Of a stretch of 55,851 bases of DNA, positions 24,642 to 53,202 are shown one piece after another. Position 1 is the stretch's first letter; every line of letters begins with the position of its first letter. The position numbers were made by a program, and so were the translations under genes. The notes beneath the pieces are model-generated. The model saw nothing but the letters and a program-made list of their open reading frames with translations, was not told the DNA's origin and ran no database searches. This DNA comes from a virus, in IMG/VR virus record IMGVR_UViG_3300020473_000001, positions 1 through 55,851 of that record; one strand, given 5' to 3'.

Positions 24642-24667
24642 GTTTTTATTCCTATATTTAAGTTAAC

Positions 24668-27709: not shown

Positions 27710-30118
27710 CTATTCAACCACCATGAACACATCCCCGCGAGTGTGGTACATGTCCATGACCTTCTTAGGATCCAATTGTACAACCTTACCAGCCCTTTTA
27801 AGTTCCTCAATAGTTTCACGTATTACCTGAATACTACGTTTATATCGAGTATCTTTAAAAATGGCGCGGCGGGTTGCACGGTTGCTTATATAGTTCCATG
27901 GAATGTGGCGGTTGGTGTGCATGTCACCCGCCCTGCTCCCATAGTTCTGCGGGTTGCTTACATTAAAGAAGCCAATCATTATTTCGCGTAATGTTTCCAT
28001 AGCTTCGTTTTCAGTACCATCCGCAATTTCACCATTCGTAACCGCACTGCGAACAATTGAATGGTGATGGCGCAATAACTGCAAACCCCAATCGACATGC
28101 TCTTTTGTGATTACTGGCTGGCTAGGGCAGTCCATAGCAGCAATTAACCCGCAAACCTTCATTAACTTAAGGTTGGCCCGTGTCCAAAGAGAGTTGACTA
28201 TATCGTCCTCACCTTTGGTGGCGTTAGCCTCGTCCGTGCATTTGCGGCTAAAGTCTGCAAAGAACTTTGAGCTATAGTCGTCTTGCATAATGGGCACAGT
28301 ATCCACATAATTAGGATCCATTAGTGCGCGGGTAACGCCCAAGGTTGCTTGCTCCAAATGGTTAAGCAAATGCTCTGGCGGTAACACAGCGTTATAAGCC
28401 GTGTCGTAAGGAATATCCCCATCATAGCGCAGTAGCATGAAGCGCGATATAAAGCCATCAGTGAACATGTCGCGCGTAATACTTTGGAAGAACGGCTCGG
28501 GTACTGACTCACCCAAAAAGCTAAACGCCACCGAGTGATTAATGTCAATGCTGTTCTCGTTCTTTGAGTAGCGCAAGCCGCCCACTACATCGTATTGACC
28601 GGACTTACTGTAAACGTCCGTCATCTGTTCACGTACCGTTGCCAGTGCGCCCCCTTGGTTATCCACGCTCACCATGTTTTTGAATATCTTACCGAACTCA
28701 CTTAAGCACTGGCAAAAGCTGGTTCGCGTTTGGAATTCATTAAACATTGCGTTCTCGTGGGTAAAGCGCTTTGTCATTATAAAGTTCCGTGCGCCTACTA
28801 TACCCTTGTGCCGTTCAAGCATTGTCATAAGCGCTTCAGGGTTCCGCGACAGTGCGCTTTTACCCGTACCACTGGGCGCTAGTACCATAAAGTAATTGTT
28901 TAGCCCCGTGCCGCTTATATTGTAGCATCGGCCGAACAAGCCACTGGCTACCGCTAAGGCTTCCGCAATAGCAAATTCCTTGATTGGCTTTAGCGACTGC
29001 CCGTAAAAGTAGCGGGCCAACTCGCCCAACATTCCAGGCGGGTAATCAATATCGCTCACGTGGCTGCTTTCGCCTAGCAACTGGTCAGCCTTAACACGCT
29101 CAGCGTCCTCAATTAGCTTTTCAGCTTCCTTCTGGCGCTCAGGGTTGAACTGGCTAAGTACAGCCGCCGCCTTTTGCTGCTCCACCTTGTTCTGGTGTTC
29201 GCGTTCCTCACGGTCACGTGCGTTCTTAGCTTGGGCAAAACCTAACGCCCGCTTAAGCTTGTACTCGCTTCCGTGGTTGCGCTGCTTGCGGTGCTGTTCC
29301 TTAAAGTTGCCAGGATAGCGGCGTGTAATGTCGCCTAACGCGCTGTTCCACCATAGGCGCTTACATTGCTCCACGTTAGGGGTAAAGTAGTTGACAATCG
29401 TCATAAAGGCGCTGTCTGCTTGGCTGGCATCAAACTCGTATTCGCTAACGCCCAACTGCTTATTCATAATTTCGCAGTAGGTCGCCCAGTCGCCATCCAT
29501 TAAGCATTTAAACTTACCACTGTGGTCATGCTCGTAACACTTAGCAATAACTTCCTCGTCGCTAAGCTTTTGCTCACCATCGGCCAGATCATAGTCAACA
29601 GCTTCCGAGGCCCGTTCATTAAAGAACTCGATAACGCTTTGGTCGTACACCATAGGCTTGTCTACAATGACGTTGCCCGTACATATAATAAAGCGCTCTT
29701 TACTGTACACTTCAATAGTGGCGGTTTTAATAGCTCCGCGTATTTCACCCTTCAGCCAAATGTGCAACCCGTTACCGCTCCGGCTAACCTCAGTATAACT
29801 AGCAAGGTCTTCCATCAGCTTGTGGTTGCTGGCAGATTGGGAAATAGGCGTATCCTCTTTAGTGTCCAAATCAATACAAGTAAAGCCATCGCCTTCGGTC
29901 AAAACAAAACCAAATCCGCGATCGGGGTACTTGTGCAATAGTGGCTCTAACTGCTCAAACGTCAATAGGTGTTGGTGATCGTGTATGCTAATACGCTGCA
30001 CATGTCCATTCACTAGCGCGTGTGGACTTTTGCACCAACTAGGGTCGGGTTCTTGGTCACGCCCTGTTAAACACCACCGTCGAGCAAGCCGTAGCTCTAA
30101 CGGAATGTTATTGTGCAT
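27710..30118 (-). CDS. Bifunctional PrimPol primase and DUF3987-type helicase
   Basis: 802 residues. The primase-polymerase domain shows CIDLDTKED (D83, D85) and SGNGLHIW (114-121, catalytic His119). A charged linker (about 290-350) leads to an ATPase domain with Walker A APSGTGKS (414-421) and the DUF3987-like body. It would prime synthesis and unwind DNA at the origin; it is encoded next to the iteron-like region, as replication initiators commonly are. The upstream HTH gene overlaps its start by 11 bases. Confidence 0.88.
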   Translation of the reverse strand: MHNNIPLELRLARRWCLTGRDQEPDPSWCKSPHALVNGHVQRISIHDHQHLLTFEQLEPLLHKYPDRGFGFVLTEGDGFTCIDLDTKEDTPISQSASNHKLMEDLASYTEVSRSGNGLHIWLKGEIRGAIKTATIEVYSKERFIICTGNVIVDKPMVYDQSVIEFFNERASEAVDYDLADGEQKLSDEEVIAKCYEHDHSGKFKCLMDGDWATYCEIMNKQLGVSEYEFDASQADSAFMTIVNYFTPNVEQCKRLWWNSALGDITRRYPGNFKEQHRKQRNHGSEYKLKRALGFAQAKNARDREEREHQNKVEQQKAAAVLSQFNPERQKEAEKLIEDAERVKADQLLGESSHVSDIDYPPGMLGELARYFYGQSLKPIKEFAIAEALAVASGLFGRCYNISGTGLNNYFMVLAPSGTGKSALSRNPEALMTMLERHKGIVGARNFIMTKRFTHENAMFNEFQTRTSFCQCLSEFGKIFKNMVSVDNQGGALATVREQMTDVYSKSGQYDVVGGLRYSKNENSIDINHSVAFSFLGESVPEPFFQSITRDMFTDGFISRFMLLRYDGDIPYDTAYNAVLPPEHLLNHLEQATLGVTRALMDPNYVDTVPIMQDDYSSKFFADFSRKCTDEANATKGEDDIVNSLWTRANLKLMKVCGLIAAMDCPSQPVITKEHVDWGLQLLRHHHSIVRSAVTNGEIADGTENEAMETLREIMIGFFNVSNPQNYGSRAGDMHTNRHIPWNYISNRATRRAIFKDTRYKRSIQVIRETIEELKRAGKVVQLDPKKVMDMYHTRGDVFMVVE

Positions 30119-30374
30119 CTTTACTCTTCAGTGTTTTGTAAGCGTTGACTAGGTTGTTGAGTTGTTCGTTGCGTTCCCACACGTAGCTATTTCCGACAGG
30201 GATTGCCATTCCGCCGTAACGTTTCATTAGAGCGATGGCAGTTGGGCGGCTCGCACCTGTAACGTTCATTACTTCCTGTACTGTGTAGTACCGTGCGTTG
30301 AACCTGTCTAGTTCGGTTTCAGTAACTGGTTGGGCCGTGAAGTGGCCTCCCAGCGCGTCACTTAAATTAGCCAT
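30108..30374 (-). CDS. Small HTH DNA-binding protein (excisionase/MerR-like)
   Basis: 88 residues from the ATG at 30374, with CGGAG upstream; the frame is open to 30431 but that region carries the -10 box. YYTVQEVMNVTGASRPTAIA is a HTH of the excisionase/HTH_17 type, followed by a wing with PVGNSYVWER. Placed between the PrimPol-helicase gene and the repeat-bearing non-coding region, it is a good candidate to bind the iterons or the GATCATTAA sites as regulator or replication initiator helper; this is inference. Confidence 0.75.
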   Translation of the reverse strand: MANLSDALGGHFTAQPVTETELDRFNARYYTVQEVMNVTGASRPTAIALMKRYGGMAIPVGNSYVWERNEQLNNLVNAYKTLKSKDAQ

Positions 30375-30708: not shown

Positions 30709-31217
30709 GGGGGTGATGACAAAACGCTGTAAGTTATTGTTTTTAGTAGAAAAAACGGCGTCACCCCAATTTTAGGCCGTCACCCACACCCCCTAGGTCT
30801 GAGGGTATGTGGGGGGATATTTGGGGTGATGTCTGCAAAAATCTATAAAAAAATGTATATTTTTATGTCTAAAAGGAATTATATCTAAATATCTAGAATT
30901 ATACTTATATAAATATATATATATTTTTTATATATATATTAATAAGTTAACATTTTTATTTTTAAACAATTCCTTTAATTTTCGTTCCAAAAAGTGAAAT
31001 TCTAAAGAAGTTTAATGATCATTAACGTCAAACATATCGAAGGGTGATGCTAGGGTGACGTTGGGGTGATGGTCGGCCGAAATCAGCTAGACCGATTTTA
31101 CCATATCCAGCCAAACCTTAACGTTAGGTAAGAAAACTGCGGATCATTAAAAAACACCCTTGGAACCTATTTACCGATCATTAAATCGGCTTAAAAACGG
31201 TTGAATTTGGGGTGATG
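30709..31217. repeat. Iteron-like GGGTGA(T/C)G repeats
   Basis: Rightward copies: 30711-30718, 30824-30831, 31042-31049, 31053-31060, 31064-31071, 31210-31217. Leftward copies (CGTCACCC): 30759-30766 and 30778-30785. The middle three start exactly 11 bases apart, one helical turn. Several copies have an extra G (GGGGTGATG). Confidence 0.8.
31012..31025. repeat. Perfect 14-bp palindrome TTAATGATCATTAA
   Basis: The palindrome precedes the cluster of three iterons by 16 bases. Its counterpart in region B is TTAACGATCGTTAA (41536-41549), also a perfect palindrome though two positions differ. Confidence 0.85.
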
Positions 31218-31272
31218 AGTGGTTAGATGGCGCTTAAAGATTAAGGAAAACACGTGAACCATTAAAATAACT

Positions 31273-31301
31273 TTGCAATCATTAAGAACTATAAATATAC
31301 T
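31273..31301 (+). promoter_or_regulatory. Rightward promoter of the accessory gene region
   Basis: TTGCAA (31273-31278), 17-base spacer, TATACT (31296-31301). An AATCATTAA repeat (31277-31285) overlaps the -35, so a protein that binds this repeat would regulate the promoter. The first gene starts at 31331 after AAGGAG. Confidence 0.75.
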
Positions 31302-31330
31302 AGGAGTTGAGTTAAAAAGAAGGAGCATTT

Positions 31331-31585
31331 ATGCGAGAACTCATAGTACGTACTACCCAAAACTTCCAAACTTACACCTTAGTAGTGAACGAGAAGGAAG
31401 CCGTTATATACTGCGAAAGCGGGATGCAGACAACGCCGACGCAGTTTGTGGTCACACGCAGGTCAGGTGATGCTGATGCAGCACTAAAACGCATCCATGA
31501 GCAGTACCTTAACAACCCGCAAATGAGCAACGATGAATTTCGTCATCTTGTAAACCAACACCTAACCCGTTACGGTTGGTATTAA
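31331..31585 (+). CDS. First early rightward gene, unknown small protein
   Basis: 84 residues, ATG after AAGAAGGAGCATTT. A beta-rich N-terminal half (TYTLVVNEKEAVIYCESG) and a helical C-terminal half (ALKRIHEQYL ... EFRHLVNQHL). First gene behind a strong promoter, a position often used for host-takeover proteins. No recognised family. Confidence 0.7.
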   Translation: MRELIVRTTQNFQTYTLVVNEKEAVIYCESGMQTTPTQFVVTRRSGDADAALKRIHEQYLNNPQMSNDEFRHLVNQHLTRYGWY

Positions 31586-31592
31586 TCATTCA

Positions 31593-31609
31593 GGGGGCTT
31601 CGGCCCCTT
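31593..31609 (+). terminator. GGGGC-TTCG-GCCCC hairpin (attenuator or terminator)
   Basis: A very stable UUCG-tetraloop stem directly after the first rightward gene, followed by TTACTTA. The same hairpin occurs after the capsid gene (51210-51227), so it may attenuate transcription or protect the 3' end of highly expressed messages. Confidence 0.6.
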
Positions 31610-31624
31610 ACTTAGGAATTAAAA

Positions 31625-32125
31625 ATGAAATCTACAATATTAACGTTTAGTTTTGAAAACACCAATCAGCCGCGCGTGGTTGTGGACTGTGTCGATACTG
31701 ATAACGGTGTTTATGATGGCGGACCAACACAACTCGCTAAAGCCACAAGGCAAACCCTCAGGTGTAAGGATTTTGAATGGAACTTCGCCAATCCCCATGA
31801 AGCTGACATAGTTCATAACGTGCTACCCAATAGCGATATGATGCACTTCAGAACAGTGCAGGACATTTTTTATAAGGTTACATGGTCGGTACACCTCAGT
31901 CATAGCGACTACATTGTTTTTGATCGATTGGTGCAGGCTGAATGCCATAATGTTGTTACCGCGTGTAAGAATGAAGTGAGACGTGCCAGCCGCCGTATGA
32001 CAGATGAGCAGGAATATAGAGAGGTTGCTGAACGTCTCGCGCATTCATATAGTAAGCGCATTGAACAGTTCCAGTCGCAACCGTGGTGGAAACGTGCATA
32101 CTTGGCTCTATTCAATAAGCTATAA
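31625..32125 (+). CDS. Early protein, unknown
   Basis: 166 residues. Polar N-terminal half, then a long amphipathic helix (CKNEVRRASRRMTDEQEYRE) and a C-terminal segment PWWKRAYLALFNKL that could dip into the membrane. No recognised family. Confidence 0.65.
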   Translation: MKSTILTFSFENTNQPRVVVDCVDTDNGVYDGGPTQLAKATRQTLRCKDFEWNFANPHEADIVHNVLPNSDMMHFRTVQDIFYKVTWSVHLSHSDYIVFDRLVQAECHNVVTACKNEVRRASRRMTDEQEYREVAERLAHSYSKRIEQFQSQPWWKRAYLALFNKL

Positions 32126-32134
32126 GGGTTTGCC

Positions 32135-32227
32135 ATGCTAGAATTAATTGTGATGGCTTTGGCGCTATTGTCTGCATTGTGCATTCTAGCGCTATTGGTT
32201 ATTGGATTAATCGATATAGGGGGTTAA
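32135..32227 (+). CDS. 30-residue single-pass membrane peptide
   Basis: ATG at 32135 with AAGGG six bases upstream; 30 codons ending TAA. Almost the whole chain is one hydrophobic helix (MLELIVMALALLSALCILAL). It sits exactly between two genes with a one-base gap to the next start, which supports real translation. Confidence 0.65.
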   Translation: MLELIVMALALLSALCILALLVIGLIDIGG

Positions 32228-32228
32228 T

Positions 32229-32561
32229 GTGAATACTTTACAACTGCCTGAACCGTTATTCATACGATACTTGTACCATCTACAGCAAATTGATTATATT
32301 GACGGTACAGCCTATTACCTTGGGCAAAAGGTTAGCTGCGTGGCTGGCAAACGTTTCATTAATGAGCACGGCCAGAAGTTTATCCGCTATTACTGCAACG
32401 GTGGCATGTACGTGGAAGGCGATTTGGATAAAGTTGAGTTGGCCCGCATCAGGGTTGAGCAGCCTAATCTAGTTTTTATCGATACGGTTGCCAACATCCT
32501 AAACCAGCCAGCCCAGTATATGGAATTTATCATTATGAAAAACAATGCGGGGATATTGTAA
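32229..32561 (+). CDS. Early protein, unknown (GTG start)
   Basis: 110 residues, GTG at 32229 after AGGGGG; there is no in-frame ATG near. Mixed alpha/beta composition (YYLGQKVSCVAGKRFINEHG, KFIRYYCNGGMYVEGDL). No recognised family. Its stop overlaps the next ATG (TAATG). Confidence 0.65.
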   Translation: MNTLQLPEPLFIRYLYHLQQIDYIDGTAYYLGQKVSCVAGKRFINEHGQKFIRYYCNGGMYVEGDLDKVELARIRVEQPNLVFIDTVANILNQPAQYMEFIIMKNNAGIL

Positions 32562-32851
32562 TGTCTGAAGCCGATGCACTGGAAGAATGGAGTGACGAGG
32601 ATTTGTATGAGGATTATGAAGATTAGGAATCTATTGGAAGCTACTACGCACAACGGCCTAAGCGACAGCCTAAGCCCACCAAGCGGAAACCAGTGCGCGG
32701 TGCTAAGGCTACGTTACGTTGCCACTGTGGCGCACAGTACAGCGCCCGCGTCGCCGATTTAAAACGGGGTTGGGGGTTTAGCTGTTCCAAAAGCTGTGCC
32801 GCCAAGCGCCGCAAGTACAAACTGCAACCAGCAACAATTCTAGGTGAATAG
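32561..32851 (+). CDS. Zinc-ribbon protein with an in-frame amber codon at 32624
   Basis: The ATG overlaps the previous stop (TAATG). Codons 1-21 give an acidic peptide (EEWSDEDLYEDYED) and end at TAG (32624-32626). The same frame continues without another stop for 74 codons: ESIGSYYAQRPKRQPKPTKR, then LRCHCGAQYSARVADLKRGW and SCSKSCAAKRRKYK, a clear zinc ribbon (CxC ... CxxxC) of the kind seen in small phage proteins. So an acidic head and a basic zinc-ribbon tail belong together. The amber may be read through, a recent mutation, a sequencing error, or the tail may start at GTG (about 32690). Other genes here end in TAG, so genome-wide recoding is unlikely. Confidence 0.6.
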
Positions 32852-32912
32852 TTCATGCTTGCGCGGGCTGGGTGGAGTGGTAAGCTGGGCCTATATTATT
32901 ACGGAGGTAGAA

Positions 32913-33299
32913 ATGGAAGAAAATAAAGAAGCGGTACTACTGGGTAACATACTGTTTGCCCTGAAGCATATACGCACGTTTGGCCCGCACGATAAAGACT
33001 ATGGTATATGCGCAAACGCGGCGAAAGTGTGCGGCCCTAAAGTGTGGTCATGGTTCACAGAAGATAACGGCCTCTGCAACTATTACGATGTATTGCTCGA
33101 ATGGGAGCATTGGTGTGAAGGTTGCCATACCATGTATCCAATTGAGGAATGGGCAGTAACCTATCACAGCAATAAGTTAAAGTGGGATCCTGAAACTGCG
33201 TACGGGCGTAAACGTTGGCACTTACTAAATCACTTCATAACCTACCTGGAAAGGTTAGGTGTTGAAAGTAATGAAAACTTTTATTACGGGGGTTACTGA
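32913..33299 (+). CDS. Early protein, unknown
   Basis: 128 residues from the ATG at 32913 (MEENKEAVLLGN), which has GGAGG five bases upstream; the frame is open to 32844 without a ribosome site. Contains a CEGC pair and many Trp. It resembles small phage proteins with a GICxNA element (YGICANAAKVCG). No function known. Confidence 0.7.
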   Translation: MEENKEAVLLGNILFALKHIRTFGPHDKDYGICANAAKVCGPKVWSWFTEDNGLCNYYDVLLEWEHWCEGCHTMYPIEEWAVTYHSNKLKWDPETAYGRKRWHLLNHFITYLERLGVESNENFYYGGY

Positions 33300-33303
33300 G
33301 GTT

Positions 33304-33801
33304 ATGAGTGATACATTCGATCACATGGTGGACGCCTACGAAAGTCTGAATTATGATGGTAATTGTGGGGTTGAAGGTGGTGGCGCACCCCCTGACCCAC
33401 TGTTTTACCATGTTAAGATTAAGTTCCTACGTATTAAGGCTGAAACGCCAAAGGCGTATCTATTTGATGTTGGTACTACAGACTTCTGGTGTCCAAAGTC
33501 CATTACCAAGAAGCTGAAGGTTGAGCCTGATGGTTGCGGATCTGTGTATGCGCACCACAAAACATTAATCAAACTATTAAGGGGGGAAACGTTAATGGGA
33601 ACTGACCACAATTCTGAAATTATTTCCATGCTCGATATAGCCAATGACTTTGCATCTGACTTTCCGGACGGTGCTTGGTTTGCTTATATGATGGAGACCG
33701 TTGAGAATTACGAAGATGCGGTTAACGATAAGCGCGCCACCAAATTAACATTTGATGCGCACGAACACGTCATGCGCTGGATAGAACTAAGAGGTGAATA
33801 A
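33304..33801 (+). CDS. Early protein, unknown
   Basis: 165 residues from the ATG at 33304 (MSDTFDHMVD). Residues about 36-75 (VKIKFLRIKAETPKAYLFDV, then FWCPKSITKKL) form a small beta domain recurrent in phage proteins. The remainder is helical and acidic. Start could also be 33271. Its stop overlaps the next start (TAATG). Confidence 0.65.
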   Translation: MSDTFDHMVDAYESLNYDGNCGVEGGGAPPDPLFYHVKIKFLRIKAETPKAYLFDVGTTDFWCPKSITKKLKVEPDGCGSVYAHHKTLIKLLRGETLMGTDHNSEIISMLDIANDFASDFPDGAWFAYMMETVENYEDAVNDKRATKLTFDAHEHVMRWIELRGE

Positions 33802-34199
33802 TGAAGGACTTTAATTTTAAATTGGAAATATTACGCAAGCGTTTAGAAATTGAAGAACGCGAAGATGGGGTTTATATTAATCTTACTAAAGATTTAAAAA
33901 TTGAGCTTACTCATCTTGAAGGTTTGCTCAAAGAGCTTATGGCAGTTCAGCAGATGGGTTTACCTAACACCGCCTGCGTGTGGTTGGCTTCTAACTTAAT
34001 CACCCATTGTCAAATCCACGAGGCTTATCAGGAATTCCAAGATGCCATTGGCAACGAAAACCCGTTTGGCTACTGGATTATTTTGACAAGCAAGATAAAC
34101 CAGGAGCGGATAATGTGGTTAAGCTACATTAAAGGGTTTATAGTTTATATTTTGTACTGTGGTAATATTGCCGCAGTACATTCGGAGCTAAGCCCATGA
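33801..34199 (+). CDS. Early protein, unknown, C-terminal hydrophobic segment
   Basis: 132 residues. A charged coiled N-terminus (EILRKRLEIEEREDG) and a C-terminal hydrophobic stretch (IKGFIVYILYCGNIAAV) that may anchor it to the membrane. TAATG at its start and ATGA at its end couple it to both neighbours. Confidence 0.65.
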   Translation: MKDFNFKLEILRKRLEIEEREDGVYINLTKDLKIELTHLEGLLKELMAVQQMGLPNTACVWLASNLITHCQIHEAYQEFQDAIGNENPFGYWIILTSKINQERIMWLSYIKGFIVYILYCGNIAAVHSELSP

Positions 34200-34447
34200 T
34201 TAACACAAAGACACTATCCAACATTTTTACAACCACTTCGCTTTCCGCATTTGCCTTTTACAACGCCTTCGAAATTCTTAAAGCCATGAGCCAGGATAAT
34301 TTCGCTATAGTTCTTATATGGCCCGAGCTCATTTTAATGGTAATATCGTTTCTGTTAGTAGTATTTCTTTTAACCCCGTATATTGAGCAGGAAGATTATG
34401 AACGAACGTGTCAAAGCACGCATGATGAAACTGATAGCGCTGACTGA
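34196..34447 (+). CDS. Small membrane protein with two hydrophobic helices
   Basis: 83 residues, ATGA overlap with the previous gene. Two transmembrane segments (about 12-30 and 40-63, the second IVLIWPELILMVISFLLVVF) and an acidic cytoplasmic tail. Function unknown. Confidence 0.65.
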   Translation: MINTKTLSNIFTTTSLSAFAFYNAFEILKAMSQDNFAIVLIWPELILMVISFLLVVFLLTPYIEQEDYERTCQSTHDETDSAD

Positions 34448-34916
34448 GAGTAGTAACAAGTACGAGGCCATTAACGCACAGGCCAAAATAGAGGCGTTGT
34501 GTCGTAAGTACAAAGTGGATATTAACGACCTTACCAGCGAAAAGGAAGAAGTTAAAGAGCGCTTAATTTATTGGTACAACATGCCATATAAAAAGCTGGC
34601 TATCCAAATCCTGTACATGCTGTTCCCGGAGACACCTATCTACAGTAGTAGGGTGAAGCAGAATAACCTTGTTGTGGATTTAAGTGACGGCGACTTTGCC
34701 CAGCTTGAGCTTTACTGGAACGTACTTAAGCCAGCGCTTAAGAAGTACATGGAAAACAGTGTATCGGCATTTATAGCGGCTAATAACCTCTACCCTAAAG
34801 ACGTTGAGCCAGTTGCTAAAGAGTACACTGAGGAAGATTATAAAATTATGGAAATGGCACAGTCAATTGATGCAACCCCAATCCACCAAGCACTGGAGAA
34901 TAAAAATGTCAGTTAG
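34398..34916 (+). CDS. DUF2786-domain protein
   Basis: 172 residues from the ATG at 34398. The N-terminus (MMKLIALTESSNKYEAINAQ, then KIEALCRKYKVDINDL) matches DUF2786, a helical domain of unknown function found in phages and Gram-negative bacteria. It overlaps both neighbouring genes. Confidence 0.75.
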   Translation: MNERVKARMMKLIALTESSNKYEAINAQAKIEALCRKYKVDINDLTSEKEEVKERLIYWYNMPYKKLAIQILYMLFPETPIYSSRVKQNNLVVDLSDGDFAQLELYWNVLKPALKKYMENSVSAFIAANNLYPKDVEPVAKEYTEEDYKIMEMAQSIDATPIHQALENKNVS

Positions 34917-35481
34917 TAGTTACCAATTAACAGAAGAATTTATAACGGCACGTGTTGAGCACTTCAAGGCGTGTTTGCACGATGCAGATCCACGCAGCCA
35001 GTACGCAGAACAGGTTAAGACAAAATTCAACCTGGATATGGTTGAAGTTGTTGAGCTCAACCAGGATGAGGAAGCTTACCCTAACCAGTTCCTGCCCAGC
35101 CGTGACACCATTAGCGGGGACTTTATTGAAGGTACGCAGTTCTTTATCATCGATAAGCCCGTGGTGTACGATACAATTCCTTACGGTGGACAGCGCTACC
35201 GCATCGTGCTAAAGGTAGGATTTATTTTTGACGGCGCAAGCATACCGCCTATAGTGTGGTCAATAGCTGGTAGCCCGTTCGTTAATGATGGCGCTGGGCA
35301 GTACCGTCTTGCCGCAGCCATCCATGACGGCCTGTGTGATAAGCACGAACTTCGCTCCACAATCGCCCACAACGTATTCAGCCGTATTCTAGAGCTAGAG
35401 GGGATTAGCCGTTGGCAACGTTTTAAAATGGTCAGCGCCGTTAAAATGTTCGGCCCTACATTCACGGGGCGTTTGCAATGA
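34906..35481 (+). CDS. DUF1353-domain protein
   Basis: 191 residues from the ATG at 34906, after GGAG. The C-terminal half (FDGASIPPIVWSIAGSPFVN, YRLAAAIHDGLCD) is the DUF1353 signature. The family is widespread in phages and has no agreed function; the conserved His/Asp pair (IHD) hints at a metal site. An N-terminal extension of 90 residues is unassigned. Confidence 0.78.
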   Translation: MSVSSYQLTEEFITARVEHFKACLHDADPRSQYAEQVKTKFNLDMVEVVELNQDEEAYPNQFLPSRDTISGDFIEGTQFFIIDKPVVYDTIPYGGQRYRIVLKVGFIFDGASIPPIVWSIAGSPFVNDGAGQYRLAAAIHDGLCDKHELRSTIAHNVFSRILELEGISRWQRFKMVSAVKMFGPTFTGRLQ

Positions 35482-35762
35482 GCGTCAACGAGTTGTTGTT
35501 CCTTTGGGGTTACGGCCTGCAAAGCGCGGGAATGCTTATATACTGCATTATCGACGTTATACGTGCAAAGCGTTGGGATGCTCGCTTTGGTTCGTACAGC
35601 ACTGAATACTGTATGTGTGGGGAGCGTGTTGATTCCCACACTATCGCCTCAAACCATGCGCCCTTAAGTGAATTTGATTACAGGTATAAAGGGCTCGTTG
35701 AATATCCTTATAAACGTGGAGGCTTCCACTTGCCTTTATTGTATCGTTCTGCTAGCATTTAG
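35478..35762 (+). CDS. Small protein with N-terminal hydrophobic helix
   Basis: 94 residues, ATGA overlap. One hydrophobic segment (LLFLWGYGLQSAGMLIYCII) and a soluble tail with CMC. DUF1353 genes are often followed by such a small membrane partner, but the role is unknown. Confidence 0.6.
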   Translation: MSVNELLFLWGYGLQSAGMLIYCIIDVIRAKRWDARFGSYSTEYCMCGERVDSHTIASNHAPLSEFDYRYKGLVEYPYKRGGFHLPLLYRSASI

Positions 35763-35791
35763 TTATCGGACATAAGTTAAGGACATTTATT

Positions 35792-35989
35792 ATGAATTTC
35801 GCACAATTACATGACTGGGTTAAATACTGCAACAAGCATAATCAACGTTGTGCAATTATCAACAAGCACACCGCTCAGGCATTACGCATCACCGAGTACG
35901 GACGTGAGCAAGTGCTGGGTGAAGACTTAGCCACTGGCAGTGAAGTGGTTGTTAAAACCAAAGAGCTTGAACACTATGCAGAATTTTAA
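35792..35989 (+). CDS. Small protein, unknown
   Basis: 65 residues, ATG after AAGGACATTTATT. Compact soluble composition (HDWVKYCNKHNQRCAIINKH). No recognised family. Confidence 0.6.
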   Translation: MNFAQLHDWVKYCNKHNQRCAIINKHTAQALRITEYGREQVLGEDLATGSEVVVKTKELEHYAEF

Positions 35990-36242
35990 CAACCAGGAAT
36001 TACTTGAGCGGGCTGCTGAGATTATGGGGGAGCCTGCCGAGGAAATGGTGATTATTGTTTGCGACGAAATGTTGCAAACGCTGGCAAAGCATGAGCTGGA
36101 TAAGCAATACGCGATTGTAACTAGCCAGAAGATGCCACCACCTACGCCTTCAACCCCTGCGCCACCAGTACAAAGGTCGCGTAAGGGTAAAGGCGAGCGC
36201 AAACGTGCCGCCCGTAAACAACGCAACCAATGGCGTAAATAA
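35976..36242 (+). CDS. Small protein with Pro-rich linker and basic tail, unknown
   Basis: 88 residues from the ATG at 35976 (MQNFNNQELLERAAEI), overlapping the previous gene by 14 bases. An acidic helical head, a PPPTPSTPAPP linker and a very basic tail (RSRKGKGERKRAARKQRNQW) that should bind nucleic acid. Confidence 0.6.
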   Translation: MQNFNNQELLERAAEIMGEPAEEMVIIVCDEMLQTLAKHELDKQYAIVTSQKMPPPTPSTPAPPVQRSRKGKGERKRAARKQRNQWRK

Positions 36243-36267
36243 GGAATTACTAAATTTGCCCCGCAAT

Positions 36268-36294
36268 CGGGCCTGTATGGCGAAAACAGGCCCG
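36268..36294 (+). terminator. Nine-base-pair hairpin, possible terminator
   Basis: CGGGCCTGT (36268-36276) pairs perfectly with ACAGGCCCG (36286-36294). The T-tract is missing, so efficiency is doubtful. It separates two transcription units; 36295-36385 holds nothing else that I can recognise. Confidence 0.5.
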
Positions 36295-36385
36295 CCCCTA
36301 TACCAACGCATTACCCCGCACATTAAACCCGCTTAAAATGGCTTACAGCGAGTCGAAAATAATTTAAAAATAATTCCAAAAGGGG

Positions 36386-36413
36386 TTGCACCCATGAACC
36401 ATTCCGGTAATAT
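36386..36413 (+). promoter_or_regulatory. Rightward promoter of the shared early class
   Basis: TTGCAC (36386-36391), 16-base spacer with GAACCATTCCGG, TAATAT (36408-36413), then ACACACAT. It is almost the same as the leftward promoter at 20247-20278. The first gene starts at 36452. Confidence 0.78.
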
Positions 36414-36451
36414 ACACACATAGACACAACGCAACACAAAAAGGTATTAAA

Positions 36452-36733
36452 ATGAACACATCAACCATTACAGTAACCCACGGTGCATATGAACAGGTGG
36501 AATTTCCTAACCCTGATACAATGGGGTATTGCTATGGTACGTGCGGCTACCGTCAGCGGGTTTCGGATGATAACTATAGCGAGTTATGCTGCGCTGGCGA
36601 TAACTGGTGGACGCTAACTGACCTTGAAAGCGACGAGCACACGCTAATTATCCACAAAGGCGACGTGGAGCAAATCAAAAAGCTAATCGCTGCTGAATTT
36701 AAACATTTCAGCGTAACTGTAAACTTTAAGTAA
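36452..36733 (+). CDS. Small protein, unknown
   Basis: 93 residues, AAGG upstream. Cys-rich middle (YCYGTCGYRQRV ... ELCCAGDNWW), then a helix. No recognised family. Confidence 0.6.
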   Translation: MNTSTITVTHGAYEQVEFPNPDTMGYCYGTCGYRQRVSDDNYSELCCAGDNWWTLTDLESDEHTLIIHKGDVEQIKKLIAAEFKHFSVTVNFK

Positions 36734-36745
36734 GGGGGTAGCAAA

Positions 36746-36970
36746 ATGAAAAACCATCCACAGCAGACAACGCACAAAACTGTTCTTAACAACCAGCAAA
36801 TTGATAACCTTGTGCAAGCGCTCGAAATTGCAATTGCAAGCGGTAAAATTGATAACAGCAAGTTCGACCAAAATAATATTTGTTTTGTTGACCCTAGCAG
36901 CACTTTAAAAATGTTGCGCGAGGTTGCCGAGTGTACTAACGCTGAACTTACTCATGGCTTGTGCATTTAG
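36746..36970 (+). CDS. Small helical protein, unknown
   Basis: 74 residues, ATG after AAGGGGG. Helical repeats (NLVQALEIAIASGKID, TLKMLREVAECTNAELTHG). No recognised family. Confidence 0.6.
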   Translation: MKNHPQQTTHKTVLNNQQIDNLVQALEIAIASGKIDNSKFDQNNICFVDPSSTLKMLREVAECTNAELTHGLCI

Positions 36971-37002
36971 CAAGCTATAGCTCACTACTTAATGGTTAAG
37001 AA

Positions 37003-37305
37003 ATGAGAGTTATACTAATAACGGTGACAATGGGTACGTTGTTTGCGGTTGCCGCCTACGATATAGCTACCGTAGCCCAAACAGCTAAGCCGCAGATAAA
37101 AATGCTAACAGAACACAAGCTTTTGTCAGGTGGTAACGCCACACACGGCTTTCATTATGTGTGTTTTAACAATCAGGTTATTTACCTAGAGCATATTGGA
37201 AACAGACAGATTACCTACGCTCCCGGTTCTTGGTATGGTGTACCAGCGGATTGTGCAAATTGGGACAATATCAGAAAACATTTAACTTGCAATGAGGGGA
37301 AATAA
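37003..37305 (+). CDS. Small secreted or membrane-anchored protein, unknown
   Basis: 100 residues. The N-terminus (ILITVTMGTLFAVAAYDIA) looks like a signal anchor; the rest is a small domain with two cysteines (HYVCFNN, PADCANW) that could form a disulfide in the periplasm. The ribosome site is weak. Confidence 0.6.
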   Translation: MRVILITVTMGTLFAVAAYDIATVAQTAKPQIKMLTEHKLLSGGNATHGFHYVCFNNQVIYLEHIGNRQITYAPGSWYGVPADCANWDNIRKHLTCNEGK

Positions 37306-37306
37306 T

Positions 37307-37570
37307 ATGCGTATAAGCCACCAACCAATTACGCTAGTTCACGGGGCCAGCTACTCAGTAATCCCACGCGGGGAAGCAAAGCCAATTCCTACAGTATGCC
37401 TATTCCTAGACCCGAAAAAGTTTAAGGCAACTATTAAACAGCGCTACCCTGACGTTCCTGAAAAACCGTGCTTTATGTACAAGGATAAGGTCAAGGGTGA
37501 ATATAAATACGTCCTATTGGGTGATGTTGCTTTTATGGCTCGGCTCGGAGGTAAACATGTTAAACGGTAA
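37307..37570 (+). CDS. Small protein, unknown
   Basis: 87 residues from the ATG at 37307, preceded by GAGGGG. Basic, soluble. No recognised family. Overlaps the next gene by 14 bases. Confidence 0.6.
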   Translation: MRISHQPITLVHGASYSVIPRGEAKPIPTVCLFLDPKKFKATIKQRYPDVPEKPCFMYKDKVKGEYKYVLLGDVAFMARLGGKHVKR

Positions 37571-37748
37571 TTTCTATCGAGGCACTGTAGTTGTGCATTT
37601 CGGCGGGCTAAAGCGTCCCAAGATTTACGAGGGTTGCGACATACATATGAGCACGCACGGCGCTTTATGTGTGGTCAAACCTAGCGGCTTAGTGGTGGCA
37701 ACTTTTGCACAAGGTCAATGGATTAGGGCCGAGCATGTCAATACTTAA
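37557..37748 (+). CDS. Small beta-rich protein, unknown
   Basis: 63 residues from the ATG at 37557, with GGAGG upstream. Alternating strands (FYRGTVVVHFGGLKRPKIYE). Overlaps the next gene by 14 bases. Confidence 0.6.
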   Translation: MLNGNFYRGTVVVHFGGLKRPKIYEGCDIHMSTHGALCVVKPSGLVVATFAQGQWIRAEHVNT

Positions 37749-37965
37749 AAATCTTACACGGGTGGCTGTACCACCTACAACATCAATTCCTTTTCTAGCT
37801 GTGTATGACCAATATGGTATTATTAGGGCTGAAACGGTGCAGTACGTTGAGGGCAATTACTACGCTTACAGCGAAGCGCAGAACAGCTTTTGCGACCAGA
37901 TAGTACAATGGTCCGAGGGTACTGAGTTTTACACTTATAGGAGTGATTTTAATGATGCAATTTAA
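37735..37965 (+). CDS. Small protein, unknown
   Basis: 76 residues from the ATG at 37735 (MSILKNLTRVAVPP). Rich in Tyr and Glu. No recognised family. Overlap of 14 bases with the following gene, the same spacing as the two previous overlaps. Confidence 0.6.
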   Translation: MSILKNLTRVAVPPTTSIPFLAVYDQYGIIRAETVQYVEGNYYAYSEAQNSFCDQIVQWSEGTEFYTYRSDFNDAI

Positions 37966-38362
37966 CTATGCGCAGCGTGAACACTGGTTTAAAACATTGG
38001 AACGTTTAAAGCATAAACTAAGCGAAATCCAGGCTCACGTGCAAAACGAAAACAGTATTACAAAAGAAGTGCCTGAACATATCGAGCAAGTTAGGGCCAC
38101 GATTAACAAGGAGCTGGGTGGTTTTAGTGATGCAATTGCTTCCATACAAAGTGGGTTTGTGTACGCAGGGGTAAACGTAATTCCTGAAAGCGAATACGGC
38201 GTTGCCATCGTAATGGAAGCTCATTTACGTGAAGCTATTGAACGTATGGCTGCAAGATTAGGCCATGCGCCGCAAAGCATTTTTGTGGATGAGACCTGCA
38301 TTGTAGAGCTGGTAAATGATATCGAGCAAAACAACTTAATGGTGTCTGAAAATGGGAGTTAG
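37952..38362 (+). CDS. Helical protein, unknown
   Basis: 136 residues from the ATG at 37952, with TAGGAG upstream. The first 60 residues form a coiled coil (TLERLKHKLSEIQAHVQ). No recognised family. Confidence 0.6.
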   Translation: MMQFNYAQREHWFKTLERLKHKLSEIQAHVQNENSITKEVPEHIEQVRATINKELGGFSDAIASIQSGFVYAGVNVIPESEYGVAIVMEAHLREAIERMAARLGHAPQSIFVDETCIVELVNDIEQNNLMVSENGS

Positions 38363-38855
38363 GCTAAAACCGAGCAAACATGTAAGCACTGCGCTCCGTA
38401 AGGCATGGGAGGCCCGTGCTAAGAAGTGTTGGCTAGCTGGTGGCGGGTGCTTTGCGCAACTTGCTTGTGGAGGCTTTGTCGGCTCACAGGCGCAGAACCA
38501 ATTAATGTACACGTTGGAAAGCGTGAGGCGCTGGTCTGGGATTATAATGGTGTTCAACTGTAACGGATACCAGCAATGGGCGGATAGTGTAGTCATAGAG
38601 AGTACGCAACCCCTTAAGTTAAACGAATTCCAACTTGGCGTTAATGCTGCCATGGATGAGTTATACGAAAGTTGTAATAAAAAGTTCATTGTTAGCTCCG
38701 GATATTATGTTGTAACCCACACAGGGTTCGACCTCGCAGCCATGCGCGATGGTGTTGTACAATGGTTTGCAGACCGAGGCGCTTTTGACGCCACCTATTG
38801 CTATTTGCAAAATGAATTGAAGGAGAAGTTAAATGAACAAGCGGCTAACGCTTAA
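38352..38855 (+). CDS. Protein with Ala/Gly-rich N-terminus, unknown
   Basis: 167 residues, ATG overlapping the previous gene by 11 bases. Basic N-terminus and a Cys/Gly/Ala segment (CWLAGGGCFAQLACGGFVGS) that may be membrane active; the rest is soluble. No recognised family. Confidence 0.55.
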   Translation: MGVRLKPSKHVSTALRKAWEARAKKCWLAGGGCFAQLACGGFVGSQAQNQLMYTLESVRRWSGIIMVFNCNGYQQWADSVVIESTQPLKLNEFQLGVNAAMDELYESCNKKFIVSSGYYVVTHTGFDLAAMRDGVVQWFADRGAFDATYCYLQNELKEKLNEQAANA

Positions 38856-39252
38856 ACAACAAACCCATGAGCTAGGCTGCGTTTCCGCGTGCCTAGCTAT
38901 GATATTAGATATGGATGTGGAGCAAGTGCGTACCGAGTTTGAAGCGGCGTTCTTTGACCACACTATGGAGGTTCCGCAGTACCTTGAAAGTAAGGGTTAC
39001 ACATGTAAGAAACCTGAAGAACCTTATCGGCTAGCACAGGGGTACATTTACCTAGTGCTTGTTCCTTCCGCAAATTCCATCGGGCTATTTCACCAGATCA
39101 TTATTGATACTCGCTTTGAGGATGAAATTATTATCCTTGACCCTGCTCGTGAGGGTAAACGCCGCTATGTTTATGAAGCTGTAAATCCAAACGAAGCAGA
39201 GGTTTGTTCATTCTATATCGAGTACGTTATTGACAAAGCGGAGGTGGAATAA
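38833..39252 (+). CDS. C39-like (papain-fold) cysteine peptidase
   Basis: 139 residues. KQQTHELGCVSACLAMIL gives the Gln and catalytic Cys16 of the C39 fold, His87 lies in GLFHQIIIDT and Asp103 in ILDPA, with the normal order and spacing. C39-like domains usually cut leader peptides or act as host-directed peptidases; here no transporter is present. The substrate is unknown. It overlaps the previous gene by 23 bases and the next by one (TAATG). Confidence 0.72.
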   Translation: MNKRLTLKQQTHELGCVSACLAMILDMDVEQVRTEFEAAFFDHTMEVPQYLESKGYTCKKPEEPYRLAQGYIYLVLVPSANSIGLFHQIIIDTRFEDEIIILDPAREGKRRYVYEAVNPNEAEVCSFYIEYVIDKAEVE

Positions 39253-39698
39253 TGGTGCATGTTGTTAACAAGGGTAAGGCGGGTGAGCGTGAGGTTGTGA
39301 AGCTTTTACAGCCAATTGTTAACGAGGTTTATGAAAGCCTTCGTATGCAGCCGCCCGACCTATTACGTAACCAAATGCAGACCGCAGTTGGAGGGTATGA
39401 CATCTGCGGGCTACCGTGGATTGCCCTGGAGGTTAAACGCCAAGAGCAGCTAAGCTTGAACGCTTGGTGGAAGCAAGTTACAACCGCATGTTGTAACGGT
39501 GAAGTTCCAATTGTAATCTTCCGTCAGAACCGTAAGAAGTGGCGCATTCTTATGCCTGCGTGGTTGCACACTGGCGGAAAAGGTCACCAGCAATGCCGCG
39601 CTGAAGTTGACCTGGATACGTTTCTAACTTGGTTCCGTGAGCGTTGCAAATACGAGGCTATTAAAGAAAGTGAGTCGACTTGCTTGGGGGACATGTAA
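39252..39698 (+). CDS. PD-(D/E)XK nuclease, Holliday-junction-resolvase-like
   Basis: 148 residues. KGKAGEREVVKLL (Glu of motif I), VGGYDICG (catalytic Asp), ALEVKRQE (ExK) and a following basic strand give the full nuclease signature seen in phage resolvase-like (Hjc/VRR-type) enzymes. Likely resolves branched replication intermediates before packaging. Start overlaps the peptidase stop (TAATG), stop overlaps the next start (TAATG). Confidence 0.78.
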   Translation: MVHVVNKGKAGEREVVKLLQPIVNEVYESLRMQPPDLLRNQMQTAVGGYDICGLPWIALEVKRQEQLSLNAWWKQVTTACCNGEVPIVIFRQNRKKWRILMPAWLHTGGKGHQQCRAEVDLDTFLTWFRERCKYEAIKESESTCLGDM

Positions 39699-39919
39699 TG
39701 CACAAGTTCTTATTGTTGATTGTATTTGCCTTTGTAGTTTGCGCCGCGTCAGTGTGTTTGGGGGCGTTGGTTCTAGCCGCACTGGGCTACGATGCCCATT
39801 ACATCGACGGTACGTTGTTGCAGCCTTTGCAGTGGGTTTTTAGCGGCTTAGTTATTAGCTTAGCCGCTTGGCTGGTGGCATGGGTTAATCGACCAAGTGG
39901 GCCATATATTAAGAAATAG
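39698..39919 (+). CDS. Small membrane protein with two hydrophobic helices
   Basis: 73 residues. A first helix (FLLLIVFAFVVCAASVCLGA), a short periplasmic loop and a second helix (SGLVISLAAWLVAWV). It could be a holin-like protein, but better holin candidates stand next to the amidase. Confidence 0.6.
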   Translation: MHKFLLLIVFAFVVCAASVCLGALVLAALGYDAHYIDGTLLQPLQWVFSGLVISLAAWLVAWVNRPSGPYIKK

Positions 39920-39956
39920 TTCTTATTGGTTAAACGCAATATATCAGTTAAACTAA

Positions 39957-39989
39957 GGCTGTAGAATATTTCTACGGCCTTTTATTTTG
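39957..39989 (+). terminator. Intrinsic terminator
   Basis: GGCTGTAGAA (39957-39966) and TTCTACGGCC (39970-39979) form a ten-base stem with one G-T pair, followed by TTTTATTTT. Confidence 0.85.
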
Positions 39990-39997
39990 GAGAAAAT

Positions 39998-40183
39998 ATG
40001 GTTCTTACAAACATTGCTATTGGAATTAGTTTATTCCTGCATTTGTGCCTCTTTGTGGCGTTCCTTAGTAAAGGAAACAGGTCGGCGTTATTTGCCCTCA
40101 TAGGCGGATTAGTTAGTTTGCTAGGTGGCGGGTTCTGGCTACTATTAATATTGATTCGACTTTTCACGGGGGATTGGGTATGA
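39998..40183 (+). CDS. Small membrane protein
   Basis: 61 residues, ATG after GGAG. Two hydrophobic helices (IAIGISLFLHLCLFVAFL; GGLVSLLGGGFWLLLILI). Coupled to the ligase gene by an ATGA overlap. Confidence 0.6.
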   Translation: MVLTNIAIGISLFLHLCLFVAFLSKGNRSALFALIGGLVSLLGGGFWLLLILIRLFTGDWV

Positions 40184-41253
40184 GTTTCAAGCCAATGTTG
40201 GCAAGCAACATTAAACCGGAACAAGTTACTGAAGAGTGTTACGGGTCAATTAAGTTGGAAGGGGTGCGCGGCATTGTACGCCCTCACGATGGTTTAGTTA
40301 CCCGCAATCTTAAGCCATTCGGCAATAGCTTAATATATCAGACACAGCTTGTGCAGAAATTAGAGGAGTACTGTGCGGGTAGTGGGATTACCCTTGAAGG
40401 TGAATTCTACGTTCATGGTTGGACTTTTAATCGCATAGATTCATGCCTACGTGGTGAGGGTAATATAGACGTTCACAGTTTACAATTCCACGTATTCGAC
40501 TGTTATATTGACCACAAACCTGACCTTACATTTAAAGACCGCGTTACTGAATATACGAAAGCGGTGCGCGAGCTGAAAGCGGAAGGTTGTGGTCAAGTTG
40601 AAATCGTTGTTCAGTATTTAATGATGGACGAGCATGATATACGTAAAGCTTACTGCTACGCTATCGAAAATGGATATGAGGGCTTTTGTCTTAAGAAAGC
40701 AGATGCGCCTTACAAGCTTGGGCGTAGTACCACCAAGCAGCAGATCTTCGTTCGCATTAAGCCTGAGGAAACTTACGACTGTGTGGTGTTGGATATACTT
40801 GAGCGCCAGCAAAACCTTTGCGAAAGCGAGGTTAACGAATTGGGCTACCTGTACAAGCGCCAGGACAAGGGGCAAAAAGCCGCCACAGGCTTAGCACAGA
40901 GCGCGGTGGTGTATACCCCTGCGTTGGGTAAGGTACACAAAGTTAGCCTTACACGCGGGCTTACAGACCCCGACCGCGCCCGTATATGGGAGGAGCGCGA
41001 GCGCTGGATTGGTACACCTATGCAGTTCGTAGCGATACCCGTTCCAGGGCAGGAGGTTCCTCGAAGCCCTCGTTTTGATAAGTGGCGCGGCGATATACAG
41101 CCAACTTTCCTTGAGCACCCTGAGAGTGATAGCGTTATGGTTAGCTGGGATCCCGCAGAAGTTGAAGCTGTTCTACAGAAATCAACGTGCCATGTAATCA
41201 CGTTAGAACAATTCATTCAACTTTATAATGAAGGTTACAGCGTTGCGAACTAA
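40180..41253 (+). CDS. ATP-dependent DNA ligase
   Basis: 357 residues from the ATG at 40180. Nucleotidyl-transfer motif I is KLEGVR (25-30, Glu in place of the usual Asp of KxDGxR), motif III region FHVFDCY, motif IV EGFCLKK and motif V VRIKPEE; the OB-fold follows. It seals nicks during replication. Standard small phage ligase length. The 41254-41667 control region follows. Confidence 0.88.
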   Translation: MSFKPMLASNIKPEQVTEECYGSIKLEGVRGIVRPHDGLVTRNLKPFGNSLIYQTQLVQKLEEYCAGSGITLEGEFYVHGWTFNRIDSCLRGEGNIDVHSLQFHVFDCYIDHKPDLTFKDRVTEYTKAVRELKAEGCGQVEIVVQYLMMDEHDIRKAYCYAIENGYEGFCLKKADAPYKLGRSTTKQQIFVRIKPEETYDCVVLDILERQQNLCESEVNELGYLYKRQDKGQKAATGLAQSAVVYTPALGKVHKVSLTRGLTDPDRARIWEERERWIGTPMQFVAIPVPGQEVPRSPRFDKWRGDIQPTFLEHPESDSVMVSWDPAEVEAVLQKSTCHVITLEQFIQLYNEGYSVAN

Positions 41254-41289
41254 TTTACCGTTCATTAAATAATTTTAGCTTTATGATTG

Positions 41290-41383
41290 CGAAGGTTTCG
41301 TATGTTTCGTAAAGGTTTTAAAAAACTACTTATAAAACAAAAGTTTACAAACTGGTTGCACCAGTTGTGACACGAAACCTTCG
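41290..41383. repeat. 12-bp perfect inverted repeat enclosing a smaller palindrome
   Basis: CGAAGGTTTCGT (41290-41301) and ACGAAACCTTCG (41372-41383) are exact inverted copies 70 bases apart. Between them lies ACTGG-ttgca-CCAGT (41351-41365). It has no counterpart in region A. Confidence 0.7.
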
Positions 41384-41637
41384 GTATACACCCCGACTCT
41401 CAGGGTGTATGGGGGTATAAATTAGGGTGATGGTGGTTATAAATCTAGGTTTGGAATTAAATATATAAATAAATACATATAAAATATATATTTTTATTTA
41501 TAGTTTTCAATAACTTACAAAACAATTAAATTTATTTAACGATCGTTAAGATCAAACAAATCGTTGTGTGATGGCAGGGTGACGAACGTTTCGATAAACT
41601 GTAACCCGTTAGTCTAGGGCGCAGCGCAAGAACTAGC

Positions 41638-52830: not shown

Positions 52831-53202
52831 ATGGCGAATTCGGATGCTTTTTATAATGAGATAGTTGCTGAAGTTGATGCCGTACTTCTTGAGTTGGGTA
52901 AATCTTACGATGTTATGGGGGAAGGTGTTTACAACAACACTACGCTGACCACAACAGACGGCCCTGTACGGCCTGTAACGGGTTTAGTTGCAGACCAGCA
53001 GACTAGCCTACAGATTGGGGCGATTTCGGGCAACACAGGGGATTACAGTTGGCTAGGTGCTAAGAATTTGCTGCTGAGCCCAAGCGCTAACCCGCAACCT
53101 GACGAGCGAATTAATGTGGACGGGGTTTGGTACGAACTCAACAACATTGTAGAGATAAAACCCGCCGACGTTGCTGTACTGTACATATTGGACATAAGCT
53201 AA
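52831..53202 (+). CDS. Head closure / neck protein
   Basis: 123 residues. Beta-rich C-terminus (INVDGVWYELNNIVEIKPAD) similar to head-closure proteins. Assigned by order: connector, this gene, HK97 gp10-like protein, tail terminator. It overlaps the next start (TAATG). Confidence 0.65.
   Translation: MANSDAFYNEIVAEVDAVLLELGKSYDVMGEGVYNNTTLTTTDGPVRPVTGLVADQQTSLQIGAISGNTGDYSWLGAKNLLLSPSANPQPDERINVDGVWYELNNIVEIKPADVAVLYILDIS

What the first reader, a model, noticed from the sequence alone, without database searches (positions are those of the whole stretch)
30786..41586. Two homologous origin-like regions, about 10.5 kb apart, flank the rightward accessory block
Region A (30786-31062) and region B (41388-41586) share the same order: GC hairpin with ACACCC/GGGT, a GGGTGATG iteron, an AT-rich tract, a 14-bp palindrome, then iterons. 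Bases 31011-31062 and 41535-41586 align without gaps at about 40 of 52 positions. The palindrome is TTAATGATCATTAA in A and TTAACGATCGTTAA in B: two positions changed, symmetrically, and perfect dyad symmetry is kept. This covariation points to selection for a symmetric binding site or structure. Possible roles: two replication origins, an origin plus a termination or packaging site, or recombination sites that let the accessory block be exchanged.
Basis: partly seen in the sequence, partly recalled or inferred. Interest (0 to 1): 0.82.

Follow-up and report, generated by a model that had tools for sequence, protein, structure and literature searches.

The report
Paired phage replication-origin-like elements
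This virus of bacteria carries two matching DNA landmarks about 10.6 kb apart that look like starting points for copying its genome, and its Vibrio-phage relatives carry the same pair at the same two places, with a 'password' repeat that differs between lineages but is shared by the two sites of each phage.

Summary
Regions A (about 30.7-31.2 kb) and B (about 41.3-41.6 kb) share order and sequence: 40 of 52 bases match, the next best place in the window gives 28, and 0 of 2000 shuffles reach 39. They are the only two extreme AT peaks in the window. The window is a Queuovirinae-like phage related to Vibrio siphoviruses. Nine other whole or near-whole genomes of this clade have exactly two such peaks, at the same two places: beside the HTH-primase operon, and between DNA ligase and the terminase module, 9-11 kb apart. 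In each genome both sites carry the same iteron, but the iteron differs by lineage: GGGTGAYG in the window, GGTTACG in the vB_VhaS-tm group, AGTGYGCA in the AL-2 group (weaker). Seurat-like relatives show one comparable element, where GC skew turns. Best reading: two replicator elements bound by one phage initiator (HTH protein and/or the winged-helix end of the PrimPol-helicase), A the main origin and B a second origin or fork barrier, as in SPP1 oriL/oriR. Binding and origin activity were not tested. Exchange sites for an accessory block are not supported. In passing: TGTGGTYA is the most over-represented 8-mer in most of these genomes.

The parts
30710..31217 (.). Element A: iterons - hairpin - iteron - AT core - dyad - iterons, in the divergent intergenic region left of the rightward early genes
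30711..30718 (+). iteron GGGTGATG (A, left arm)
30759..30766 (-). iteron GGGTGACG, inverted (A, left arm)
30778..30785 (-). iteron GGGTGACG, inverted (A, left arm)
30780..30817 (.). GC-rich hairpin CACCCACACCCCC...GGGTATGTGGGGGG (A)
30824..30831 (+). iteron GGGTGATG (A, between hairpin and AT core)
30844..30963 (.). AT core of A (91% AT), candidate unwinding element; the tract continues to about 31010
31012..31025 (.). dyad TTAATGATCATTAA (A)
31042..31049 (+). iteron GGGTGATG (A, right arm)
31053..31060 (+). iteron GGGTGACG (A, right arm)
31064..31071 (+). iteron GGGTGATG (A, right arm)
31210..31217 (+). iteron GGGTGATG (A, outer right)
41290..41586 (.). Element B: inverted repeat - hairpin - iteron - AT core - dyad - iterons, between DNA ligase and the terminase module
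41290..41301 (.). left arm of the perfect 12-bp inverted repeat CGAAGGTTTCGT (partner 41372-41383), at the place of the left iteron array of relatives
41372..41383 (.). right arm ACGAAACCTTCG of that inverted repeat
41386..41410 (.). hairpin ATACACCC...GGGTGTAT (B)
41425..41432 (+). iteron GGGTGATG (B)
41437..41556 (.). 120-bp window of highest AT in B (86%); AT core about 41437-41535, the window also covers the dyad
41536..41549 (.). dyad TTAACGATCGTTAA (B)
41566..41573 (+). variant iteron GTGTGATG (B)
41577..41584 (+). iteron GGGTGACG (B)
30108..30374 (-). small winged-HTH protein (88 aa, MerR/Xis/BldC-like), candidate iteron binder; co-oriented with and abutting the primase
27710..30118 (-). 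PrimPol - MCM-like AAA helicase with a predicted C-terminal winged-helix-like domain (residues about 691-802), candidate initiator
40174..41253 (+). ATP-dependent DNA ligase, conserved left neighbour of B

Best explanation
A and B are two copies of one replicator element. A single phage-encoded initiator binds the iterons on both sides of the AT core, melts the core and loads the PrimPol-helicase. The binder is either the small winged-HTH protein encoded next to the primase, or the C-terminal winged-helix-like domain of the primase itself, or both. A, beside the initiator operon and at the GC-skew minimum, is the main early origin. B, 10.6 kb downstream beside the terminase module, is a second origin or a site where the bound initiator stalls forks and promotes the switch to concatemer (recombination-dependent) synthesis, as proposed for SPP1 oriR. 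Shown here: homology, architecture, position and matched iterons. Inferred: protein binding, melting, origin activity, division of labour.
For: A-B similarity exceeds the shuffle mean in all 11 genomes tested, z 4.5 to 40 (in G002 one of 300 shuffles equals the observed score). All 10 whole or near-whole Vibrio-clade genomes have exactly two outlier AT peaks, which are A and B, 8.9-11.3 kb apart. The genome's own iteron has its two largest clusters at A and B, e.g. K251 12 and 10, tm 7 and 9, G003 10 and 8, window 7 and 3; the AL-2 clusters are weaker (4 and 5 against 3 elsewhere). The iteron differs by lineage but agrees within a genome; the A-by-B score matrix is blocked by lineage. Iterons flanking an AT core is the published architecture of Gram-negative PICI origins (PMC6092414), and direct repeats plus an AT-rich unwinding element that of SPP1 oriL/oriR (PMC6316719). 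The neighbour is a PrimPol-helicase related to SaPI5 Rep and NrS-1 primase; SaPI Reps bind iterons with the C-terminal domain (PMC7581432). The two candidate binders diverge faster between iteron lineages than the helicase domain: HTH 37/20%, primase C-terminus 47/19%, against helicase 65/49% (window against tm/AL-2). The detrended GC-skew minimum lies within about 1 kb of A in all 10 genomes. In WildeMaa and JenK1, with a single element inside leftward genes, skew turns at the element and not at the transcription divergence. The phage carries Sak4-like annealing protein, Cas4-type exonuclease, SSB, RusA-like resolvase and ligase.
Against: No binding or replication data. GC skew is confounded by transcription direction in the Vibrio clade and shows no inflection at B; the skew of A-B is slightly lower than right of B in 10 of 10 genomes, which gene content could also cause. 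B of the window has only three iterons, one of them variant. The elements lie in front of gene clusters, so a regulatory role is not excluded.
Confidence: 0.72

Rival explanations
1. A and B are paired transcription-control regions. The HTH protein binds the iterons as operators and couples the divergent early promoters at A with a late promoter at B.
For: Both sit in front of gene clusters; the HTH is of a regulator-like fold; promoter-like sequences lie at the right end of A in relatives (sequences) and at 31272-31301 in the window.
Against: Promoter-like sites are not above chance in A or B. A 120-bp AT core between two iteron arrays is unnecessary for an operator; single-element relatives show the skew turning at the element without a transcription divergence.
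Confidence: 0.17
2. A is the origin and B, beside the terminase genes, is a packaging (pac) or replication-termination site built from a copied origin.
For: B lies about 1 kb upstream of the small terminase gene; pac sites often lie near terS (general knowledge).
Against: B keeps the full origin architecture and the same iterons as A, which a terminase would not be expected to read. Where the virion DNA ends lie was not tested.
Confidence: 0.12
3. A bipartite replicator like P4 ori plus crr: both sites are needed together through looping, neither works alone.
For: Two iteron sites read by one primase-helicase type initiator; P4 alpha binds repeats at the P4 origin with a winged-helix domain (PMC4234260).
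Against: As recalled, P4 crr lacks the AT core, whereas B has one; more distant relatives appear to manage with one element.
Confidence: 0.12
4. Recombination sites that allow exchange of the block between A and B.
For: The block between A and B holds many small unknown genes.
Against: Positions and flanking core genes are fixed across lineages with primase identity down to 42%; the AT cores and the matched iterons are not explained.
Confidence: 0.03

Closest known systems
Bacillus phage SPP1 oriL/oriR with gp38 (PMC6316719, PMC3485210)
   Same: Two origins of the same organisation (direct repeats plus AT-rich unwinding element) about 12-13 kb apart, one at the initiator gene and one in the late region, both bound by one protein.
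   Different: SPP1 uses gp38, loader gp39 and the DnaB-type helicase gp40; here the operon encodes an HTH protein and a PrimPol-MCM-like fusion. A lineage-wide coordinated change of iterons was not mentioned in the passages read. Binding and origin activity unproven here.
Gram-negative PICI pri-rep origins (PMC6092414)
   Same: Two iteron sets flank an AT-rich region and a primase-helicase is encoded nearby.
   Different: One origin on a small satellite, not two on a lytic phage.
SaPI Rep origins (PMC7581432)
   Same: PrimPol domain related to SaPI5 Rep (PDB 7ola); SaPI Rep reads iterons with its C-terminal domain.
   Different: Single origin downstream of rep; no HTH partner described in the passages read; the helicase part here looks MCM-like.
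Phage P4 ori and crr
   Same: Primase-helicase initiator with a C-terminal winged helix reading short repeats; two sites (crr from memory).
   Different: P4 alpha has a bacterial-type (Toprim) primase; crr is not a full origin copy (from memory).

Membership tests
SPP1-type paired origins | two sites of the same organisation, direct repeats plus AT-rich core | tested here: met
SPP1-type paired origins | one site in or next to the initiator operon, the other in the late region | tested here: met
   A beside HTH-primase, B between ligase and terminase
SPP1-type paired origins | gp38-gp39-gp40 (DnaB) initiation proteins | tested here: inconclusive
   PHROGs scans of 37 window proteins gave a PrimPol-helicase and no DnaB or helicase loader; not every ORF was scanned and SPP1 gp38 was not used as a query
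SPP1-type paired origins | one protein binds both sites | not testable with these tools
   matched iterons are indirect support
SPP1-type paired origins | initiation at one site and fork arrest at the other | not testable with these tools
   needs replication mapping
PICI/SaPI iteron origins | iteron arrays on both sides of an AT-rich core | tested here: met
   in B of the window the left arm is an inverted repeat plus one iteron
PICI/SaPI iteron origins | single origin per element | tested here: not met
   two in all 10 Vibrio-clade genomes
PICI/SaPI iteron origins | primase-helicase Rep encoded next to the origin | tested here: met
Queuovirinae | 7-deazaguanine (queuosine-type) pathway genes and syntenic replication genes | tested here: met
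   QueC, QueE, QueD, GTP cyclohydrolase, TGT-like, PolA-type polymerase in the order of K251

The most novel reading that the evidence does not exclude
Vibrio-infecting Queuovirinae keep an obligate pair of origins whose recognition code (iteron) has been replaced as a set at both sites, together with the cognate HTH and/or primase C-terminus, at least twice; the second site is a programmed fork barrier or late origin that drives concatemer formation. This would be an SPP1-like strategy built on PrimPol-helicase machinery, and a natural series of origin-code switches.
Probability: 0.35. Interest if true: 0.75.

Novelty: new variant of a known kind. Interest (0 to 1): 0.62.

Why it matters
Origins of most lytic phages are unmapped. 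Here comparison alone gives two candidate sites, the recognition repeat and two candidate binding proteins in a phage subfamily with isolated members that can be grown. The matched change of repeats at both sites in three lineages makes initiator specificity and the purpose of a second origin directly testable.

Tried and rejected
Chance or AT-composition match: rejected. TGTGGTCA as an operator specific to A and B: rejected, it is genome-wide. Dam or Vibrio RctB-like sites because the dyads contain GATC (and A holds ATGATCA): not supported, ATGATCA also occurs elsewhere, relatives have ATC-N4-GAT instead, and B has no ATGATCA. DnaA boxes at A or B: none found. Close relatives in IMG/VR by the primase, the gene right of B, or a DNA pattern over dyad and iterons: none; relatives came only through alignments. 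Megablast of the A-B region against phage records: no match. Hairpin position as a conserved structural feature across all A and B: irregular, left open. Word statistics for the AL-2 lineage iteron are weaker than for the others.

Full report
What the window is. The 55,851-base window is itself an IMG/VR virus record. Its 802-aa primase is 55-56% identical to that of Vibrio phages vB_VhaS-tm, K251, CHI, AQKL99 and pVco-14 and about 42% to AL-2 and R29Z, most of them classed as Queuovirinae. It carries the 7-deazaguanine genes, PolA-type polymerase, Sak4-like annealing protein, Cas4-type exonuclease, SSB, RusA-like resolvase and ligase in the order of K251. No close relative was found in the collections searched.

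Observation. The 52-base stretch of A matches B at 40 positions, the next best place gives 28, and no shuffle of 2000 reaches 39. GGGTGATG occurs 8 times against about 1 expected, five times in A and once in B. A and B hold the only two extreme AT peaks of the window, 91% and 86% per 120 bp. Region B has three iterons (one variant, GTGTGATG) and a perfect 12-bp inverted repeat at its left.

Conservation. In every Vibrio-clade genome read, an intergenic element stands at the same two places: left of the rightward early genes beside the HTH-primase operon (A), and between ATP-dependent ligase and the terminase module (B). Ten whole or near-whole genomes each have exactly two outlier AT peaks (z 4.7 or more, others 3.9 or less), and these are A and B, 8.9 to 11.3 kb apart. 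Within-genome A-B similarity exceeds the shuffle mean in all 11 genomes tested (R29Z and G002 are the weakest, and in G002 one shuffle equals the observed score).

Matched iterons. The vB_VhaS-tm group uses GGTTACG at both sites: in K251 12 copies of GGTTAC in A and 11 in B against less than one expected each. The AL-2/R29Z group uses AGTGYGCA and TGTGCAA at both; this is weaker, and in AL-2 the clusters are 4 and 5 against 3 elsewhere. The window uses GGGTGAYG. Whole-genome counts put the top two clusters of each genome's own iteron at A and B. The window's repeat differs from GGTTACG by one base in its GGTGACG form, so the sets look related; the AL-2 repeat does not. The A-by-B score matrix is blocked by lineage. 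The simplest reading is one trans-acting reader for both sites, with conversion between the copies as a possible contributor; the two were not separated here.

The palindrome. In the tm group the same position, just before the first right-hand iteron, holds a dyad ATC-N4-GAT once in each A and B (15 of 16 sites), in some fully symmetric (ATCACGTGAT, ATCATATGAT). The window's TTAAYGATCRTTAA is the window's form of this element. This supports a symmetric site, but the two-change covariation on its own is thin.

Who reads it. Two candidates. The 88-aa protein encoded beside the primase is a winged HTH of the MerR/Xis/BldC type (HTH_17 in 6 of 7 members at a loose cut-off; model pLDDT 80; structural matches are weak). 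The primase joins a PrimPol domain (NrS-1, SaPI5) to an MCM-like AAA domain and a C-terminal domain whose predicted secondary structure fits a winged helix (full-length model of modest confidence). Both candidates diverge faster between iteron lineages than the PrimPol and helicase domains; only the linker at 300-355 is more variable. SaPI Rep reads iterons with its C-terminal domain.

Origin or regulator. The detrended skew minimum lies within about 1 kb of A in the whole clade, but transcription also diverges there. WildeMaa and JenK1 help: they have one element inside leftward genes, and the skew between the element and the divergence is -0.006 and -0.008, against -0.083 (sd 0.036) and -0.104 (sd 0.045) for 2-kb windows of the leftward half. 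Two genomes only, so suggestive. No skew inflection is seen at B. The A-B interval has lower skew than the 10 kb right of B in all ten genomes, which would fit some leftward forks from B but could be gene content.

Beyond the clade. WildeMaa, G005 and G011 have one clear iteron cluster with an AT peak; JenK1 and Vid5 also show one but their second peaks or repeats are less clear-cut. VpKK5, a distant Vibrio Queuovirinae (primase about 24% identical to that of vB_VhaS-tm), has two elements about 8.7 kb apart with GGGAAA-type repeats, one directly downstream of its primase gene, so pairing may have arisen more than once.

Mechanism. By analogy with SPP1, where gp38 binds both oriL and oriR and the bound oriR is thought to stall forks and start concatemer synthesis, I propose A as the main origin and B as a second origin or fork barrier. 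Steps shown: homology, position, architecture, matched repeats. Steps inferred: binding, melting, initiation, stalling.

Novelty. Paired phage origins are known in SPP1, and iteron arrays around an AT core in PICIs. A lineage-wide conserved pair in PrimPol-helicase phages with coordinated change of iterons was not found described in the papers searched; the paper library is partial. I score it as a new variant of a known kind.

Noticed in passing
whole window, e.g. 3406, 31447, 41646, 54329; relatives tm, K251, AL-2, R29Z, JenK1, WildeMaa, VpKK5 and others: TGTGGTYA (TGTGGTCA, or TGTGGTTA in WildeMaa, Vid5, PaP007, 83AMN; TGTGGCCA also in VpKK5) is the most over-represented 8-mer in most of the 22 genomes checked (18-59 copies against 1.3-2.3 by chance; S0112 and G011 lack it). 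In many of the genomes it is spaced more evenly than random and alternates in orientation (VpKK5 35 of 42 switches, AL-2 43 of 56; not in the window, 12 of 28). No paper with the sequence in this role was noticed in one search. Function unknown.
   Followed up: partly
NC_026610.2 (VpKK5) 5100-5360 and 53080-53340; loci L150, L151: A distant Vibrio phage has its own pair of AT cores flanked by AGGGAAA and AGGGGAAA repeats, one right behind the primase gene, the other about 8.7 kb away.
   Followed up: partly
30542, 31012 (minus strand), 31017, 31142, 31176: GATCATTAA occurs five times in the window, all in region A; a second repeat of unknown role.
   Followed up: no
23860-24700: The SSB gene holds a dense CAGCAAC/AACAGCA repeat (low-complexity stretch), also seen in the SSB gene of K251 and in a gene of vB_VhaS-tm.
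   Followed up: no
27710-30374: A small DNA-binding gene directly upstream of the primase is annotated in other phages too (AlpA family in Stenotrophomonas BUCT627, DNA-binding domain protein in Shewanella S0112), which suggests a widely kept two-gene operon.
   Followed up: partly
34804-35481: An early-region ORF inside the A-B block matches a tail assembly chaperone family (phrog_1158, residues 129-219), an odd place for a tail gene.
   Followed up: no
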